A stretch of DNA of 7,510 bases, from contig DAOVHI010000066.1 in NCBI GenBank assembly GCA_030671985.1, forward strand, positions 1-7,510. Reading direction: 5' to 3'. How positions within the stretch are numbered: position 1 is the stretch's first letter; every line of letters begins with the position of its first letter. The notes under the pieces were generated by a model. That model saw nothing but the letters and a program-made list of their open reading frames with translations, was not told the DNA's origin and ran no database searches. Positions 2 through 6,898 of this stretch are shown here, piece after piece. The DNA is from JAHJDO01 sp030671985 [NCBI: bacterium]. Lineage in GTDB: Bacteria > JAHJDO01. The position numbers and the translations under genes were made by a program.

Positions 2-1471
2 TATATGATTGTTGGATTTATTAGGTGGAATAGCGGAGATGGTGTAGTATCTTTTGATAGTCAGGAAGGAACGGGAGTATTGCCTCCGATATCTAATGAA
101 AATTTTAGTATGATCTGGGCATCTCATGATAAAGAAACTGAGAAAGTTGCTCAGAATAATGCGGAAGAACTTCTTCAATTTCTTGATGACACAGAACCTG
201 TTCTTGATTTAGTCCGAGTTCTGGAATCAATCAAAGATGAAGACGAAACTAAAGACAAGAATCTCTCAACGCTTCCTGAAAGTGAGTGGGGAGAGGAAGA
301 CACAAACTGGACACAACATATAATAAGTGAAGACTCAGAATCTTTTCCGCTGGATTTGGATAAATACGGACATACTTATATAGAGGGAAAGGTTAGCGAT
401 GAATATCTTCCTGCAACGACAGAAGTAGATATTAAGGTATATAGAGAAGGAGAGACAACTTCTGTATGGGAGAATACTCCAAAGACTAGTTTGCTTAAAC
501 CATACGCAGAACAGACTCCAGCGCCAGCAGGGTTCAGATATGAGGTTGGATTTGGGTCTGAGAATCCGGAACCGGGAGTATATGAGATAAAGGTTTTTGT
601 AGAAAACCCGGCAGAATTAAAATCACTGGTAAAGACAGTTAAGGTAAGGGTAGGAGGAATTTGGCAATGGATAGGAAGTCCAGGTACAGTAAACTCCTTA
701 ATGTCATATGATGGGAAGTTATATGCTAGCACGGACAATGGTGTATATTATTTTGACGATAATTGGGTGAAGATTAGTGAAATGGCAATTTGTGACATGC
801 AGGTATATGGGAATTATCTATATGGCTTTTTAAATTTTTACTCCTCTGGTGCTAAATCAAAAGTATATTGTTATAACGGCTCTACTTGGACAGAGGTTGG
901 ATTTTTTCATAGTACAATTAGGCGATTGGTAGTAGCAGGCGGAAATTTGTATGCTCTTTGGGGCTATGTATGGCGTTACCAAGGCGGTAGTAATTGGCAA
1001 CCTTGTAATTGGTATTGGTTTAGAGATTTATTTGAGCATAATGGTCAATTGTACGCAATATACGGGTGGGATTATACATATTTGTATTTATATAATGGAG
1101 AAAATTGGGTAATGGTATCTTTTCTTGGCAGAGATTCTTATAATGACAATACTGCAATTTTCCATGAGGGAAACTTACATATTGGAAGCACAGGGGTATG
1201 GCGATGGAACGGGCTACCTAGACCTAATGATGAATGGACATGCTTGACTGGTGAAGGCGGTTCTCCTGGAAGGATACAGAGCTTAATAGAATATAATGGA
1301 AAGTTACATGCTATAGATTATTATGGAGCATGGTGTTATGAATGTTCCGAAGGAGAAGACGCATGGGTGAATGATGGCTACAGTTTGTGTGGTACGCATA
1401 GAAAACGGCCAATGACTATTCACAATGGAAAGTTATATGCTGGTAGCTTATGGCGTTATGATGGGGATTAA
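2..1471 (+). CDS. C-terminal part of a probable alpha/beta-hydrolase (lipase-like) protein with beta-sandwich and seven-bladed beta-propeller; 5' end outside window
   Basis: The frame is open to the left edge (a Tyr codon precedes the ATG at 5), so this is probably a 5'-truncated gene; residues are numbered from that ATG. Residues 11-20 (GDGVVSFDSQ) and His41 (ASHDKE), followed by a short helix (AEELLQFLDD), resemble the acid and histidine parts of a serine-hydrolase triad in lipases. The nucleophile would lie upstream of the window. An acidic linker (about 60-115) leads to an Ig-like beta-sandwich (about 120-216). Residues 219-488 hold seven degenerate repeats of the form N/DGKLYA...VYxYNGxxWxxV, typical of beta-propeller blades and rich in Trp and Tyr. 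The last blade lacks its final W strand, which the segment IWQWIG (219-224) could supply. The protein is probably exported or cell-surface, but no signal peptide is visible here. The hydrolase call is inferred; the propeller call is firmer. Its substrate is unknown. Confidence 0.75.
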   Translation, partial: YMIVGFIRWNSGDGVVSFDSQEGTGVLPPISNENFSMIWASHDKETEKVAQNNAEELLQFLDDTEPVLDLVRVLESIKDEDETKDKNLSTLPESEWGEEDTNWTQHIISEDSESFPLDLDKYGHTYIEGKVSDEYLPATTEVDIKVYREGETTSVWENTPKTSLLKPYAEQTPAPAGFRYEVGFGSENPEPGVYEIKVFVENPAELKSLVKTVKVRVGGIWQWIGSPGTVNSLMSYDGKLYASTDNGVYYFDDNWVKISEMAICDMQVYGNYLYGFLNFYSSGAKSKVYCYNGSTWTEVGFFHSTIRRLVVAGGNLYALWGYVWRYQGGSNWQPCNWYWFRDLFEHNGQLYAIYGWDYTYLYLYNGENWVMVSFLGRDSYNDNTAIFHEGNLHIGSTGVWRWNGLPRPNDEWTCLTGEGGSPGRIQSLIEYNGKLHAIDYYGAWCYECSEGEDAWVNDGYSLCGTHRKRPMTIHNGKLYAGSLWRYDGD

Positions 1472-1676: not shown

Positions 1677-2216
1677 TTGAAAATTAATAATTCTCTAAAA
1701 TTTAGTTTAAAAATATTTACTCTTATATCTCTCATTTACGTTATATGCGGAGCTTCATTCTCTATTCAAGCCGCTGAAAACAGTGAAATGCAGAAAACAA
1801 CAAGAATAACCAGTGACAGAATGGAAATGAATTGGAGCAAGAATGTGGCTGTTTTTATAGGGAATGCATTGCTTGTTGATGAAGACGGCAGGGTAGAAGC
1901 AGATAAAATCGAGGTTTTTTTAGCTGCCTCAGAGAAAGGTGAAAATCAGGAGGATATTGAAAAAGTCATTGCCATAGGGAATGTCAAAATTACAGCTCCC
2001 GAGAGAAGGACAAAATCGGGTAAAGCAGTATTCCATAAGAAAAAGGATGTTCTCATACTTACCGATAATCCTGAAGTGTGGCAGAAGGGAACCCGTTTTA
2101 CAGGAGGGAGAATTACCTTTGATCTAAAAAAAGACACTATGGTTATAGACAAAGACGTTCAGGGTTCTGTTGAATCTTCCAAGAAGAAAGGTAAAGATGA
2201 AAATATTACAGACTAA
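1677..2216 (+). CDS. lptA: LptA-like (OstA family) periplasmic lipopolysaccharide transport protein; start uncertain
   Basis: LptA forms the periplasmic bridge that carries lipopolysaccharide from the inner-membrane LptBFGC complex to LptD in the outer membrane. From the chosen TTG the product is 179 aa, close to E. coli LptA. Residues 1-33 look like a Sec signal peptide: a Lys-containing n-region, hydrophobic core IFTLISLIYVICGASF, and QAA before the mature part. The OstA beta-jellyroll follows: ITSDRMEMNW (44-53), VFIGNALLVDEDGRVEADKIEV (59-80, strand-rich), VIAIGNVKI (97-105), NPEVWQKGTRFTGGRITF (131-148), ending in a Lys-rich tail. GTG starts at 1527, 1620 and 1623 are possible. The first would place translated repeat ahead of the signal peptide, and the other two a long n-region. 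No good ribosome site supports any start, so the native start may have been lost or changed. The 3' end overlaps lptB. The family call is solid; the start is not. Confidence 0.82.
   Translation: MKINNSLKFSLKIFTLISLIYVICGASFSIQAAENSEMQKTTRITSDRMEMNWSKNVAVFIGNALLVDEDGRVEADKIEVFLAASEKGENQEDIEKVIAIGNVKITAPERRTKSGKAVFHKKKDVLILTDNPEVWQKGTRFTGGRITFDLKKDTMVIDKDVQGSVESSKKKGKDENITD
2186..2191 (+). promoter_or_regulatory. Ribosome binding site of lptB inside the 3' end of lptA
   Basis: GAAAGG lies 5 nt before the ATG at 2197. It favours that ATG over the in-frame TTG at 2170, which has no comparable site and would add nine residues not typical of LptB. Its position inside lptA suggests translational coupling. 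Confidence 0.6.
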
Positions 2217-2919
2217 AGATCTCATTAAAGACTACTCTCGCAAGAGGGTGGTAAATAATCTAAGTATCCGAATTTGCACCGGGGAAATTGTTGGATTGCT
2301 TGGACCGAATGGCGCAGGAAAAACAACTACTTTTTATATGATTGCTGGTCTTATAAAACCGGATGGAGGTAAAACCTTTTTTAGTGACGAAGATATAACA
2401 TCCTGTCCCATGTCAGAACGCGCAAGAAAAGGACTTGGATATCTATCTCAGGAGCCTTCAATCTTCAGAAAACTTACTGTTAGGGATAACATTTTTGCAA
2501 TATTAGAAACACTTCCTTTGACAAAAGAGGAGCGTGAAGAAAGATTAATTGAGTTACTTAGTGAGCTTAATATTTCTCATCTTAAAAATCGCAAAGCTTA
2601 TACACTGTCAGGAGGGGAAAAAAGAAGAGTAGAAATAGCAAGAGCCTTAGTAACCCGTCCATCTATTCTTTTGCTTGATGAACCATTTACAGGAATAGAT
2701 CCAATAGCTGTGTGTGATATACAGGACATTCTCAGAGATTTAAAGAAAAAGGGCTATGGCGTGCTTATTACAGATCACAGTGTCAGAGAAACATTAAACA
2801 TTACAGATCATGCTTATATCATTCATGACGGTCAAATCCTCACTGCAGGAACTCCCAAAGAGATATTATCACACAAAGGCGCTCGTAAGTCATACTTTGG
2901 GGAAGATTTTTCACTCTAA
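2197..2919 (+). CDS. lptB: LptB, ATPase subunit of the lipopolysaccharide export ABC transporter
   Basis: LptB is the cytoplasmic nucleotide-binding subunit that pairs with LptF/LptG and powers extraction of lipopolysaccharide from the inner membrane into the Lpt bridge. From the ATG at 2197 it is 240 aa, matching the usual length. Motifs in order: Walker A GPNGAGKTT (36-44), Q-loop Gln85 in YLSQEPSIF (82-90), signature LSGGE (137-141), Walker B ILLLDEP with catalytic Glu162, and switch His194 in ITDHSV. The stretch SQEPSIFRKLTVRDNI and the ending YFGEDFSL are characteristic of LptB rather than of generic ABC ATPases such as LivG/LivF. All catalytic residues are present. The gene overlaps the end of lptA by 20 nt, implying co-translation. 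The rpoN gene that often follows lptB in Gram-negatives is absent; the gene is followed by a long non-coding gap. LptF, LptG and LptC must be encoded elsewhere. Confidence 0.95.
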   Translation: MKILQTKDLIKDYSRKRVVNNLSIRICTGEIVGLLGPNGAGKTTTFYMIAGLIKPDGGKTFFSDEDITSCPMSERARKGLGYLSQEPSIFRKLTVRDNIFAILETLPLTKEEREERLIELLSELNISHLKNRKAYTLSGGEKRRVEIARALVTRPSILLLDEPFTGIDPIAVCDIQDILRDLKKKGYGVLITDHSVRETLNITDHAYIIHDGQILTAGTPKEILSHKGARKSYFGEDFSL

Positions 2920-3326
2920 TAAGCCGAGATACAGGCCGTCTAGGACAAAAAATACATGTCAGGCATACAAACGCACCTATTTAAGACGAATTCTGCTAAA
3001 AACACTCTATGAAATTTCAATTCTTAAAAACAGTCCATTAAGTCTAATAGTAGGGAAAATGCACAAATAGGAATTCTTGTTATAATTTTTTTATGCCAGC
3101 TCTATTTAGTTCTTATTTTTACGATCTGTTCATAATTTCATTTTTAAATTAGTATATTCTTGCTAAAAAAAAGACAGAGAGAGATTTTAATTATGGAATA
3201 ACAAGATAGTTCCCAGCATCTAACATATTGAAATTAGGCATGTTATGTATTTTGAGTTAAAACATTGCATTATGTTATTATTTTGCAGCGCGAACAAAAG
3301 CCACCTTCTTTAAATATATTTCCATT

Positions 3327-3354
3327 AGTTTACATAAGATATCTTATGCGACGT
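3327..3354 (-). other. dif: dif-like XerC/XerD recombination site (chromosome dimer resolution)
   Basis: Read on the - strand the site is an 11-bp left arm ACGTCGCATAA, a 6-bp spacer GATATC and an 11-bp right arm TTATGTAAACT. That is the 11-6-11 layout of dif. The right arm is identical, from memory, to the XerD-side arm of Bacillus subtilis dif and one or two changes from the E. coli arm TTATGTTAAAT. The left arm shares CGCATAA with the E. coli XerC arm GGTGCGCATAA. XerC and XerD would bind the arms and exchange strands at the spacer, activated by FtsK, to resolve chromosome dimers at the terminus. Supporting context: it lies in a gene-free gap and flanking genes on both sides point towards it. 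Alternatives are a Xer site used by an integrated element, or chance in AT-rich DNA, although the length of the match argues against chance. Confidence 0.72.
3333..3348. repeat. Perfect 16-bp palindrome at the core of the dif-like site
   Basis: CATAAGATATCTTATG reads the same on both strands. It consists of the inner five bases of both Xer arms plus a self-complementary spacer GATATC. Symmetric inner arms are normal for dif, but a fully symmetric spacer is not: the usual spacers, such as TGTATA in E. coli, are asymmetric. Confidence 0.9.
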
Positions 3355-3454: not shown

Positions 3455-6400
3455 CTATAAACTTAGCCTAACTGCCTCTTGTCCAATAAGATGCCGCAAT
3501 TTGACAAGTAAGCCTTTTTTTGGAGATACATGGATTTTTGAATCCGCCAACATAGTTATCTCTCCTGATTGAGGGATTGCTACATGCAAATAAACAATAG
3601 ACTTTCCAGGATATTTAATTAATAAATCCTTTAATTTTTGAAGCATTTGCTCATCAAGTCCTGTACTTATGAGCCTGAGATGTATAGCCTTTGTCAGCTT
3701 TTCCTCTGTTTCTGAAAGTGGGATGATATTTGATGCAATTACTTTTGGCTGGTCCTCTCTGAGATCAAGCCTTCCTTTTATAAGTAACAATTTATCTACT
3801 TCAATAAGATTATCAAATTTCTTAAATACAGCAGGATAAACCAGAACACTTATCGTTCCCTGCATATCTTCCAGAGTGAACGTGCACATACGTTTTTTAT
3901 CCTTTCTGGTGAGAATCCTCTTCAATATATTTATTATGCCGCCTATATAAATCTCATCACCATCCTGATGCCCTGAAACAAGTGCATTTGACGCTGTTGT
4001 GAAGGATTTAAGGGTATCTTCATGCTTTGCTAACGGGTGTCCGCTAACATAGAAGCCCAGTACTTCTTTTTCGTATGCAAGCAGCTTATTTTCCGTCCAC
4101 TCCTCTACATTCGCAAACTTATAAACACTTTCACGAAATTCCTTTTGTGATTCAAATACATCAAAAAAGAGAGTCTGTCCTCTTTGGGTATCTTTTTGTA
4201 TTTGTTGTGCGACTTCAATTGCATGATCCAATGTATGCATAAGCTGAGCTCTTAGTCTGCCAAAATTAAACGTACCGGCCTTGATTAAACTTTCTATTAC
4301 TCTTCTGTTTGCTGTGCGCAGGTCAACACGTTCACAAAAATCATACAGAGATTTAAAATCGCCGTGCGCCTCTCTTACTTTAGCAATAGAATTGATAGCT
4401 GCTTCGCCAACGTTTTTTATTGCTGACAAACCAAAACGAATATTCTTCCCTTCCATTGTAAATTTGGCGTAGCTTTTATTAATATCAGGCTGTAATACCT
4501 CAATACCCATATCTTTGCACTCATTTATATACAATACGATCTTGTCCGTGTTTCGTAATTCACTGTTCAAGAGAGCTATCATGAAAGCAACGGGATAATT
4601 CGCCTTAAAATATGCCGTTTGGAAAGCAATCATTGCGTATGCAGCACTATGAGATTTGTTAAATCCATACCCTGCAAAATATGCTATTAAATCAAAGATT
4701 TTAGACGCAATTGGTTCTTTTACCCCTTTTTTAATAGATCCTGAGATAAACGCATTTCTTTGTTTATCATCCATTATCCCCTTTTTACCCATAATCCTGC
4801 GCAGTGTGTCCGCTTCACTCATAGAAAAACCGGCAAACTCGTTTGCTATTTTTATTACCTGTTCCTGATAAAGTATAACTCCGTACGTTTCCTTTAATAT
4901 GGGTTCCAAAATAGGATGATCATATTTTATAGGATCTTTACTATGTCTTCTCTTCACAAAAGTGTCTAACGCTCCTCCCTGCATTGGCCCAGGTCTGAAT
5001 AAAGAAACAAGAGGAATTAGATCATTAAAAGATTCAGGTCTCAATTTTCTTGAAAGGTCACGCATTCCGGAGCTTTCCAATTGGAACACGCCTATAGTTT
5101 TTCCTTCAGAAATCAGTGACGAAAAAGTGTTTTTATCATCTAAGGGCAATTTGTCAATTTCAATTTTTTTGTCATGATGCTGTTCTATAAGAGCAACGGT
5201 GTCCTGAATAACAGTCAATGTTTTAAGTCCAAGAAAATCTATTTTCAATAGACCTATTTTTTCCAGTGAGTTCATGCCGTATTGAGTGCTTATGTCTGCC
5301 TTATTGCTCTTGAATAATGGCGTAAAATCGGTAAGAGACCCTTCTGAAATAACAACTCCTGCGGCATGAGTTGAAACGTGTCTTGCCAGTCCTTCCAGAG
5401 ACTTAGCAATATCCATTAATGCCTTTACCTGTTCATTCTCTTCTATCAGCTTTGACAGCTCCTTTTGTGTCTCTATAGCGCTCTTTAGCGAAATATTAGG
5501 TCCAAGAGGAATCATTTTCGCAATTTTATCTACCTCTGCATAAGGCATATTTAAAACTCTGCCAACATCTCTTATAACTGCTTTAGCTGCCATTGTTCCA
5601 AACGTTGCAATCTGCGCTACATTTTCTCTCCCATATTTTTCTACGACATAATCTATTACTTCTCCACGTTTTTCATAACAAAAATCTATGTCTATATCCG
5701 GAAGGCTTACACGATCCGGATTTAAGAATCTCTCAAATATTAATCCATATTTAAGAGGGTCAATATTTGTAATACCCAGAGAATACGCAACCAAACTTCC
5801 TGCGGCTGAACCTCTGCCCGGACCAACTGCTATCTCTTTGTTTTTAGCGTATCGTATAAAATCCCACACTATAAGAAAATAACTTGCGTAATTCATTTTT
5901 CCTATAACACGCAGTTCATATTTAAGTCTGTCGGTTATTTCCTTAGTAACGTCTCCAAATCGTTTTTCACAACCTTCTTTGACCAATTTCTCAAGGTAGA
6001 TTTGAGGGTTACTTTCTTCTTTTGGGACATTGAAATGAGGAAGGTATTTCTTGGAAAAATCAAGTTCTAAATTGCATTTTTCTGCAATTTCAATTGTATT
6101 AAGAATCGCTTCAGGGGTTTCATTAAAGAGTTGTTTCATTTCATCAGGAGATTTAAAATAGAATTCCTCTACTGAAAAACGCATCCGCTTTGGATCATCC
6201 ATTGTTGTGCCTGTTTGAATGCACAATAATGCCTCATGTGAAAGAGCATCATGTTTTCTCATGTAATGGCAATCGTTTGCCGCCACTGTTGGAATATTCA
6301 GTGCTTTACCGAATGATATAAGTTCTCTACTAATCTTTAATTGTCCTTCAATGCCGTGGTTATGTAACTCCAGATAAAAATTGCCTTTCCCAAATATGTC

Positions 6401-6898
6401 CTGATATTCGGAAATAAGCTTTTCTGCACCATCCAACTGGTCGCTGAGTATAAGATGAGAAATTTCCCCTTTCATGCAGCCACTGAGACCTATTATGCCT
6501 TTTGAATGCTCCGATAAAACTTGTTTATCAATGCGAGGTTTATAATAAAATCCTTCAAGGTAAGCAATCGTTGCGAGTTTTATAAGGTTCTTATATCCGT
6601 CTTCATCAGCAGCAAGCAGTGTAAGATGGAAAGCAGCTTCTTTTATTCCATGCAACGCTCTTTCCTTCCTATTTCCCGGAGCAATATATGCTTCATATCC
6701 AATAATTGGCTTAATCCCCTGCTTCATTGCTTTATCATAAAATTCTATTGCTCCAAACATGTTTCCATGATCAGTAATGGCCAAAGCCGGCATTTTGAAC
6801 TCATGGGCAAGGGATATAATGTCATCCAGTCGGCATGCCCCGTCAAGCAGACTATATTGAGTATGATTATGAAGGTGAACAAAATTTGAATGTTTCAT
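3455..6898 (-). CDS. dnaE: DNA polymerase III alpha subunit, DnaE1 type
   Basis: This is the catalytic subunit of the replicative DNA polymerase. At 1147 aa it is full length (E. coli about 1160). The N-terminal PHP domain starts with HLHNHTQYSLLDG (8-20) and continues with TDHGN (42-46), GYEAY (67-71), FHLTLL (90-95), LSGC (138-141), ELHNH (177-181) and NDCH (208-211). The palm carries GPGRGSAAGSLVAYSLG (359-375) and PDIDIDF (400-406) with catalytic Asp403 and Asp405; the third Asp is Asp554 in KIDFLGLKTL. Fingers include FRPGPMQGGALD (634-645) and YGFNKSHSAAYA (744-755). A GQTLFF segment (907-912) sits where the beta-clamp-binding motif is expected. An OB-fold (about 982-1060) and a C-terminal domain follow. 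The ATG at 6896-6898 has AAGGA six bases upstream. The gene follows truA by 35 nt and probably shares its transcript. Confidence 0.97.
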   Translation of the reverse strand: MKHSNFVHLHNHTQYSLLDGACRLDDIISLAHEFKMPALAITDHGNMFGAIEFYDKAMKQGIKPIIGYEAYIAPGNRKERALHGIKEAAFHLTLLAADEDGYKNLIKLATIAYLEGFYYKPRIDKQVLSEHSKGIIGLSGCMKGEISHLILSDQLDGAEKLISEYQDIFGKGNFYLELHNHGIEGQLKISRELISFGKALNIPTVAANDCHYMRKHDALSHEALLCIQTGTTMDDPKRMRFSVEEFYFKSPDEMKQLFNETPEAILNTIEIAEKCNLELDFSKKYLPHFNVPKEESNPQIYLEKLVKEGCEKRFGDVTKEITDRLKYELRVIGKMNYASYFLIVWDFIRYAKNKEIAVGPGRGSAAGSLVAYSLGITNIDPLKYGLIFERFLNPDRVSLPDIDIDFCYEKRGEVIDYVVEKYGRENVAQIATFGTMAAKAVIRDVGRVLNMPYAEVDKIAKMIPLGPNISLKSAIETQKELSKLIEENEQVKALMDIAKSLEGLARHVSTHAAGVVISEGSLTDFTPLFKSNKADISTQYGMNSLEKIGLLKIDFLGLKTLTVIQDTVALIEQHHDKKIEIDKLPLDDKNTFSSLISEGKTIGVFQLESSGMRDLSRKLRPESFNDLIPLVSLFRPGPMQGGALDTFVKRRHSKDPIKYDHPILEPILKETYGVILYQEQVIKIANEFAGFSMSEADTLRRIMGKKGIMDDKQRNAFISGSIKKGVKEPIASKIFDLIAYFAGYGFNKSHSAAYAMIAFQTAYFKANYPVAFMIALLNSELRNTDKIVLYINECKDMGIEVLQPDINKSYAKFTMEGKNIRFGLSAIKNVGEAAINSIAKVREAHGDFKSLYDFCERVDLRTANRRVIESLIKAGTFNFGRLRAQLMHTLDHAIEVAQQIQKDTQRGQTLFFDVFESQKEFRESVYKFANVEEWTENKLLAYEKEVLGFYVSGHPLAKHEDTLKSFTTASNALVSGHQDGDEIYIGGIINILKRILTRKDKKRMCTFTLEDMQGTISVLVYPAVFKKFDNLIEVDKLLLIKGRLDLREDQPKVIASNIIPLSETEEKLTKAIHLRLISTGLDEQMLQKLKDLLIKYPGKSIVYLHVAIPQSGEITMLADSKIHVSPKKGLLVKLRHLIGQEAVRLSL

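What the first reader, a model, noticed from the sequence alone, without database searches (positions are those of the whole stretch)
3327..3354. A dif-like chromosome dimer resolution site between lptB and dnaE
Seen: on the - strand, ACGTCGCATAA, GATATC and TTATGTAAACT in 11-6-11 order inside a 535-bp non-coding gap. Known: bacterial dif sites have this layout, with XerD arms TTATGTAAACT (B. subtilis) or TTATGTTAAAT (E. coli) and XerC arms ending CATAA in E. coli. Inference: this is the dif of this replicon, which would mark its replication terminus. Annotation pipelines rarely call dif, so it is probably unannotated.
Basis: partly seen in the sequence, partly recalled or inferred. Interest (0 to 1): 0.8.

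Follow-up and report, generated by a model that had tools for sequence, protein, structure and literature searches.

The report
A chromosome dimer resolution site (dif)
This is an ordinary bacterial dif site, the short DNA mark where two fused chromosomes are cut apart before cell division, found in a little-known uncultured bacterial lineage; an unexplained conserved stretch of non-coding DNA beside it is the only unusual part.

Summary
The 28-bp site at 3327-3354 reads exactly as described and is almost certainly this chromosome's dif. It scores 40.3 bits on a dif profile, against at most 16.6 in 20 Mb of random sequence, and is the only place in the 92%-complete, 1.25-Mb assembly within three arm mismatches. 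Three of four congeners have it once, beside dnaE; 26 of 28 bases are invariant against 43 of 100 on the dnaE side. The cumulative GC-skew peak is within 0.6 kb in the window and two congeners, but 22 kb away in G002. The assembly encodes XerC and FtsK with gamma domain; XerD was found in three congeners, not in this assembly. dif is known from many phyla, so this is a new member of a known kind.

One thing is unusual: about 144 bp on the XerD side (3147-3290) are conserved like dnaE itself and well above its four-fold sites (118 of 144 against 182 of 334 invariant), with no sign of an RNA fold, a convincing ORF or extra Xer half-sites. Its role is open: a regulated promoter or an accessory sequence are candidates.

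The parts
3327..3354 (-). dif site, 28 bp
   Evidence: Exact sequence; only hit at up to 3 mismatches in own assembly; 40.3 bits on dif profile vs random maximum 16.6 in 20 Mb; 26/28 invariant in four congeneric genomes
3344..3354 (-). XerC-binding arm ACGTCGCATAA (assigned by likeness to the known dif layout)
   Evidence: the two variable bases of the site, 3353-3354, lie in this arm
3338..3343 (.). central region GATATC, itself a palindrome
   Evidence: 20 of the 28 positions of the site are palindromic
3327..3337 (-). XerD-binding arm TTATGTAAACT (assigned by likeness to the known dif layout)
   Evidence: invariant in the four genomes
3147..3290 (.). conserved non-coding block of unknown role on the XerD side of dif (ends chosen by eye from the alignment)
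   Evidence: 118/144 columns invariant in four genomes; 20/36 between block and dif; 43/100 on the other side of dif; 71/207 further left; dnaE four-fold sites 182/334. Longest invariant run 3232-3262
3252..3281 (+). promoter-like TTGAGT-18-TATTAT with TG before the second hexamer; both hexamers invariant in the four genomes; tentative
   Evidence: promoter-like matches are no commoner than chance in this region (2 found, 2.5 expected)
2170..2919 (+). lptB, reading towards the site
   Evidence: NCBIfam TIGR04406, 346.7 bits vs cut-off 240 (scanned from 2200)
3455..6898 (-). dnaE, reading towards the site
   Evidence: NCBIfam NF005298, 1511.2 bits vs cut-off 1260

Best explanation
This is the chromosomal dif site of the bacterium. 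After replication of a circular chromosome, crossing over between sisters can leave a dimer. XerC is expected to bind ACGTCGCATAA and XerD TTATGTAAACT; [quoted passage not shown] Shown here: the site, its uniqueness in the held assembly, its conservation in the genus, the convergent genes and local skew switch, XerC and FtsK genes in the assembly and a XerD gene in three congeners. Inferred from established knowledge of XerCD/dif/FtsK: binding, activation, recombination, and that the site marks the terminus.
For: Sequence and uniqueness. The arm pattern is found in 27 of 97 genomes searched, own included; 23 of these 27 are outside the genus; the reversed control has 0 of 97. In 10 of those 23 outside genomes, chosen for long contigs, 6 have the cumulative-skew maximum of the 40-kb stretch within 2 kb of the hit and 7 have positive skew on the left and negative on the right. 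Site beside dnaE in G002, G003 and G004. Skew maximum within 0.6 kb in the window, G003 and G004. Reading frames of 100 aa or more: left all + and right all - in the window and G004; left all + and right mostly - in G003. XerC passes its model (344.9 vs 335.15 bits) and has 88-89% identical orthologues in G002 and G003. XerD passes its model in G001, G002 and G003 (G003's again). FtsK has 4TM, alpha, motor and gamma domains. 9 of 28 bases are G or C and 20 of 28 positions palindromic, and the site is intergenic: features listed for proteobacterial dif in PMC2731167 (abstract and section 8 read).
Against: No XerD in this assembly: the best match to the G003 XerD is the assembly's XerC at 42% identity; the assembly's XerC also comes within 0.2 bits of the XerD cut-off. 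In G002 the skew peak of the 62-kb contig is 22 kb away, although the sign does turn locally at the site, and coding direction there is mixed. At four-fold sites the skew changes sign across the site in the window only, not in G002, G003 or G004, so part of the local switch may come from gene direction. G001 (62% complete) has no such site, only weaker ones. In 4 of the 10 outside genomes tested (G027, G051, G055, G075) the hit is not near the skew maximum. G004 was not searched for Xer genes, and FtsK was sought in the window's assembly only. No recombination was tested.
Confidence: 0.96

Rival explanations
1. It is a dif-like attachment or module site left by a mobile element that uses XerCD, not the chromosome's own dif.
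For: Mobile elements that integrate through dif/Xer are known (PMC5357621, abstract passage seen). G001 has a contig with three weak dif-like sites around small genes.
Against: One copy in the assembly and no better candidate; no integrase among the five window proteins scanned; same place beside dnaE in four genomes.
Confidence: 0.03
2. The 28 bp are part of a larger conserved regulatory or RNA-coding intergenic element and only look like dif.
For: The adjoining 144 bp are conserved as well.
Against: The arm pattern recurs in 23 genomes outside the genus; of the 15 outside genomes searched with the whole stretch, 14 have no match and G005 matches over the dif part only.
Confidence: 0.01

Closest known systems
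dif of Bacillus subtilis and Escherichia coli (XerCD/dif/FtsK)
   Different: Central region is the palindrome GATATC; a 144-bp conserved block lies on the XerD side, which I know of for neither (recalled)
Thermococcales dif (XerA), PMC2958812 (passages seen)
   Same: dif with conserved AT-rich flanks; the authors do not rule out a protein partner that binds them
   Different: Flanks there are about 23 bp and the recombinase is a single XerA
Plasmid cer and psi sites, PMC5357621 (passages seen)
   Same: An Xer core site next to accessory DNA of about 180 bp, comparable in length to the block; cer also carries a promoter for the Rcd RNA
   Different: Plasmid sites; here a 28-bp chromosomal dif with FtsK-gamma present, and the block is on the XerD side, whereas accessory DNA of cer/psi is on the XerC side (recalled)

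Membership tests
Chromosomal dif of an XerCD system | 28-bp site with 11-bp XerC arm, 6-bp centre, 11-bp XerD arm | tested here: met
Chromosomal dif of an XerCD system | One copy per chromosome | tested here: met
   One in the 92%-complete assembly; one each in G002, G003, G004 at up to 3 mismatches; unassembled parts not seen
Chromosomal dif of an XerCD system | In non-coding DNA | tested here: met
   535-bp gap between convergent lptB and dnaE
Chromosomal dif of an XerCD system | At the replication terminus / GC-skew switch | tested here: inconclusive
   Skew maximum within 0.6 kb in window, G003, G004; 22 kb away in G002; no ordered genome
Chromosomal dif of an XerCD system | XerC and XerD encoded | tested here: inconclusive
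   Both in G002 and G003; XerC but no XerD found in the window's assembly
Chromosomal dif of an XerCD system | FtsK with gamma domain | tested here: met
   PF09397, 95.2 bits vs cut-off 30.6, in the window's assembly
Chromosomal dif of an XerCD system | FtsK-orienting octamers pointing to the site | not tested
   Too little ordered sequence
Chromosomal dif of an XerCD system | XerC/XerD binding and recombination in vitro or in vivo | not testable with these tools
   -
cer/psi-type site with accessory sequences | Extra binding sites for Xer or accessory proteins next to the core | tested here: inconclusive
   XerD-like half-sites in the block no better than in shuffles (158 of 400 reach the best score); ArgR, PepA and ArcA sites not tested

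The most novel reading that the evidence does not exclude
The conserved 144-bp block on the XerD side is a functional partner of a chromosomal dif in this lineage: either an accessory sequence on which a protein sets the direction or timing of XerCD recombination, or a regulated promoter whose transcript crosses dif, comparable to cer and its Rcd RNA on plasmids.
Probability: 0.15. Interest if true: 0.6.

Novelty: new member of a known kind. Interest (0 to 1): 0.2.

Why it matters
A dif call points to the likely terminus of a lineage held only as fragmented assemblies and suggests that it uses the canonical XerCD/FtsK system. The phylum as held is five genomes of one genus. dif was predicted in 641 organisms of 16 phyla by 2011 (PMC3025954, abstract read), so another case is expected. 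The conserved flank is the part that could teach something: if it acts with dif, chromosomal dif sites would not always be self-sufficient 28-bp elements.

Tried and rejected
Structured RNA for the block: the G000 sequence 3140-3326 folds less well than shuffles on both strands (z 1.40 and 1.77; 185 and 197 of 200 shuffles fold at least as well). No Rfam family at gathering threshold; five matches far below their gathering scores, E 0.29 to 3.1. The consensus fold of the + strand, dif included, has 64 pairs, 3 with a two-sided change, from 4 sequences; the - strand alignment was made but not folded. Not supported, but four sequences are few.

Small protein in the block: two short frames keep start and stop in all four genomes (22 aa on +, 16 aa on -). 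By eye most changes in them alter the residue, so I judged them chance; no test was run.

Extra XerD half-sites in the block: rejected, scores no higher than dinucleotide shuffles.

Repeat element: the stretch 2925-3450 matches one place each in G000, G002, G003 and G004 (in two adjoining pieces in the last three). It matches nothing in G001 or in 14 of 15 genomes outside the genus; G005 matches over the dif part only.

dnaE-dif linkage as an old arrangement: of 80 dnaE loci from genome contigs only L035 has a dif over 22 bits, and its contig has the length and site position of G004's. Several of these loci hold little flank.

Baseline from other intergenic regions of the genus: tried with a 16.8-kb own contig, but it has almost no gaps, so dnaE four-fold sites and the neighbouring flanks are the yardstick. 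On a binomial view 118 of 144 is far above the four-fold rate (P 4e-12) but not above the dnaE average (P 0.11). The block's ends were chosen after seeing the alignment, which makes the first figure too small.

A scan of viral contigs with DnaE found no relative. A paper search for dif, XerD and Omnitrophota together found 0 papers.

Full report
What is there. The + strand at 3327-3354 reads AGTTTACATAA-GATATC-TTATGCGACGT; its complement has the XerC-centre-XerD order ACGTCGCATAA-GATATC-TTATGTAAACT. It lies in the 535 bp between the stops of lptB (+) and dnaE (-). The window is the whole of contig C5 (7510 bases) in a 1,253,468-base, 152-contig assembly, 92% complete.

Is it more than chance? 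With the centre left free and up to three mismatches in 22 arm positions the assembly has one hit, this one, and the reversed pattern none. A looser pattern has 31 hits against 34 for its control, but only this site without a mismatch. A dif profile from 20 sites outside the genus gives 40.3 bits; the best of ten 2-Mb random sequences is 16.6. The profile's sites had been found with this site's own arms, so the fairer evidence is: of 97 genomes, own included, 27 have a hit, 23 of them outside the genus, and none has a hit to the reversed pattern.

Do such hits behave as dif? For 10 of the 23 outside genomes, chosen for long contigs, I took 20 kb on each side. In 6 of 10 the cumulative GC-skew maximum of the stretch lies within 2 kb of the hit (G011, G032, G033, G046, G057, G073). 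In 7 of 10 (these and G075) skew is positive on the left and negative on the right. G027, G051 and G055 fit neither test; G051's hit, with changes in both arms, is in my view a false one.

In the genus. Four congeners are held, and with G000 they are all that is held of the phylum. G002, G003 and G004 have the site once, beside dnaE; G001, 62% complete, has only weaker ones. The left neighbour changes: lptB directly in G000 and G003, a - strand reading frame between lptB and the site in G002, no lptB match in the 6.3-kb G004 contig. The closest named record is 'bacterium isolate CSMAG_2459' (DnaE 89%), whose contig has the length and site position of G004's; the next records are mostly named Omnitrophota, at about 54% and below. 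I could not name the phylum.

Terminus. In the window, G003 and G004 the cumulative skew maximum is 564, 500 and 335 bp from the listed start of the site. In G002 it is 22 kb away on a 62-kb contig; there the sign does turn at the site (+0.06 at 26-28 kb, -0.14 to -0.21 at 28-34 kb) but turns back after 34 kb, and coding direction is mixed. At four-fold sites skew is +0.02 left and -0.15 right in the window, but negative on both sides in G002, G003 and G004. So gene direction explains part of the local switch, and an ordered genome is needed.

Machinery. XerC of the assembly (C136) passes the XerC model (344.9 vs 335.15 bits), while scoring 329.4 against 329.6 on the XerD model; it has 88-89% identical orthologues in G002 and G003. 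A separate XerD passes the XerD model at 360-371 bits in G001, G002 and G003 (G003's again), about 40% identical to XerC. G004 was not among the genomes. The window's assembly has no match to the G003 XerD better than its own XerC at 42%; a gap in the assembly is the likely reason, not shown. FtsK, sought in the window's assembly only, has the 4TM, alpha, motor and gamma domains.

How it most likely works. As standard XerCD/dif/FtsK dimer resolution: XerC and XerD bind the arms, FtsK gamma activates XerD at the septum, and one crossover between two dif copies yields monomers. The parts are shown by sequence; every step of the action is inferred from the known system. dif was predicted in 641 organisms of 16 phyla (PMC3025954, abstract and section 6 read). 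The features listed for proteobacterial dif, namely intergenic, low G+C, palindromic and near the skew maximum (PMC2731167, abstract and section 8 read), are met, except that the terminus is tested only locally.

The unexpected part. On the XerD side, window 3147-3290, 118 of 144 columns are identical in G000, G002, G003 and G004. The comparison values are 182 of 334 four-fold sites of dnaE, 20 of 36 columns between block and dif, 43 of 100 between dif and dnaE, and 71 of 207 further left, gap columns counted as changed. On the dnaE side the low value comes mainly from G000; G002 and G003 are 96% identical there. The longest invariant run, 31 bases at 3232-3262, is longer than that of the dif site, 28 bases at 3325-3352. 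A 144-base stretch of dnaE has on average 112 and at best 126 invariant columns, so the block is about as constrained as an essential gene, not more. It stays with dif where the left neighbour differs and matches one place in each of the four genomes. It shows no structured RNA, no convincing ORF, no Rfam family and no excess of XerD half-sites. A promoter-like pair TTGAGT/TATTAT at 3252-3281 has both hexamers invariant and three changed positions between them, but such pairs are expected by chance in this region. A promoter with upstream control sites, or an accessory sequence for dif, are both open. Thermococcales dif sites also have conserved flanks, of about 23 bp (PMC2958812, passages seen), and plasmid cer has about 180 bp of accessory DNA and a promoter (PMC5357621, passages seen). 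I searched the paper library and saw in the listings no report of such a block at a bacterial chromosomal dif; I looked into five papers only (PMC3025954, PMC5357621, PMC2958812, PMC2731167, and passages of PMC9765430), so this is a limited search.

Verdict. The site is a dif, an ordinary member of a known kind; the block beside it is the part worth a follow-up.

Noticed in passing
L196 (G001:C2, 5379 bp), sites at 39-66, 1839-1866 and 3695-3722: Three weak dif-like sites in the same orientation, about 1.8 kb apart, with small genes between them: a ParE-like toxin (PF15781) preceded by an 80-aa ORF without Pfam match, and an AbiEii-like nucleotidyltransferase. They could be Xer-site modules of the kind reported from Acinetobacter (PMC12907356, listing seen). 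Against: the two sites scored have 13.8 and 16.1 bits, which 2-Mb random sequences reach, and the search that found the third gave 1 reversed-control hit in G001 against 3.
   Followed up: partly
L197 (G005:C62), 1321-1614 and 1758-1785: A dif-like site 143 bp from a short tyrosine recombinase reading frame of 97 aa, which matches only the C-terminal part of the XerD model.
   Followed up: no
G002, matches: 16 matches to the XerD model, three of them close together on contig C150, against 2 in G003; many tyrosine recombinases, perhaps of mobile elements.
   Followed up: no
G000:C42:3527-3967 and G000:C54:16692-16805: Two contig ends carry complementary parts of a tyrosine recombinase domain (profile positions 2-134 and 133-169): possibly one gene split by the assembly.
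   Followed up: no
window 5-1471 (+): A 488-aa reading frame with no Pfam match at E 0.001, open at the contig's left end; no tblastn match on the dif contigs of G002, G003 and G004.
   Followed up: no
L127 (G000:C54) 15904-16281: A 125-aa reading frame with several DNA-level relatives (about 72-81% identical) in each of G002, G003 and G004: a family multiplied in the genus.
   Followed up: no
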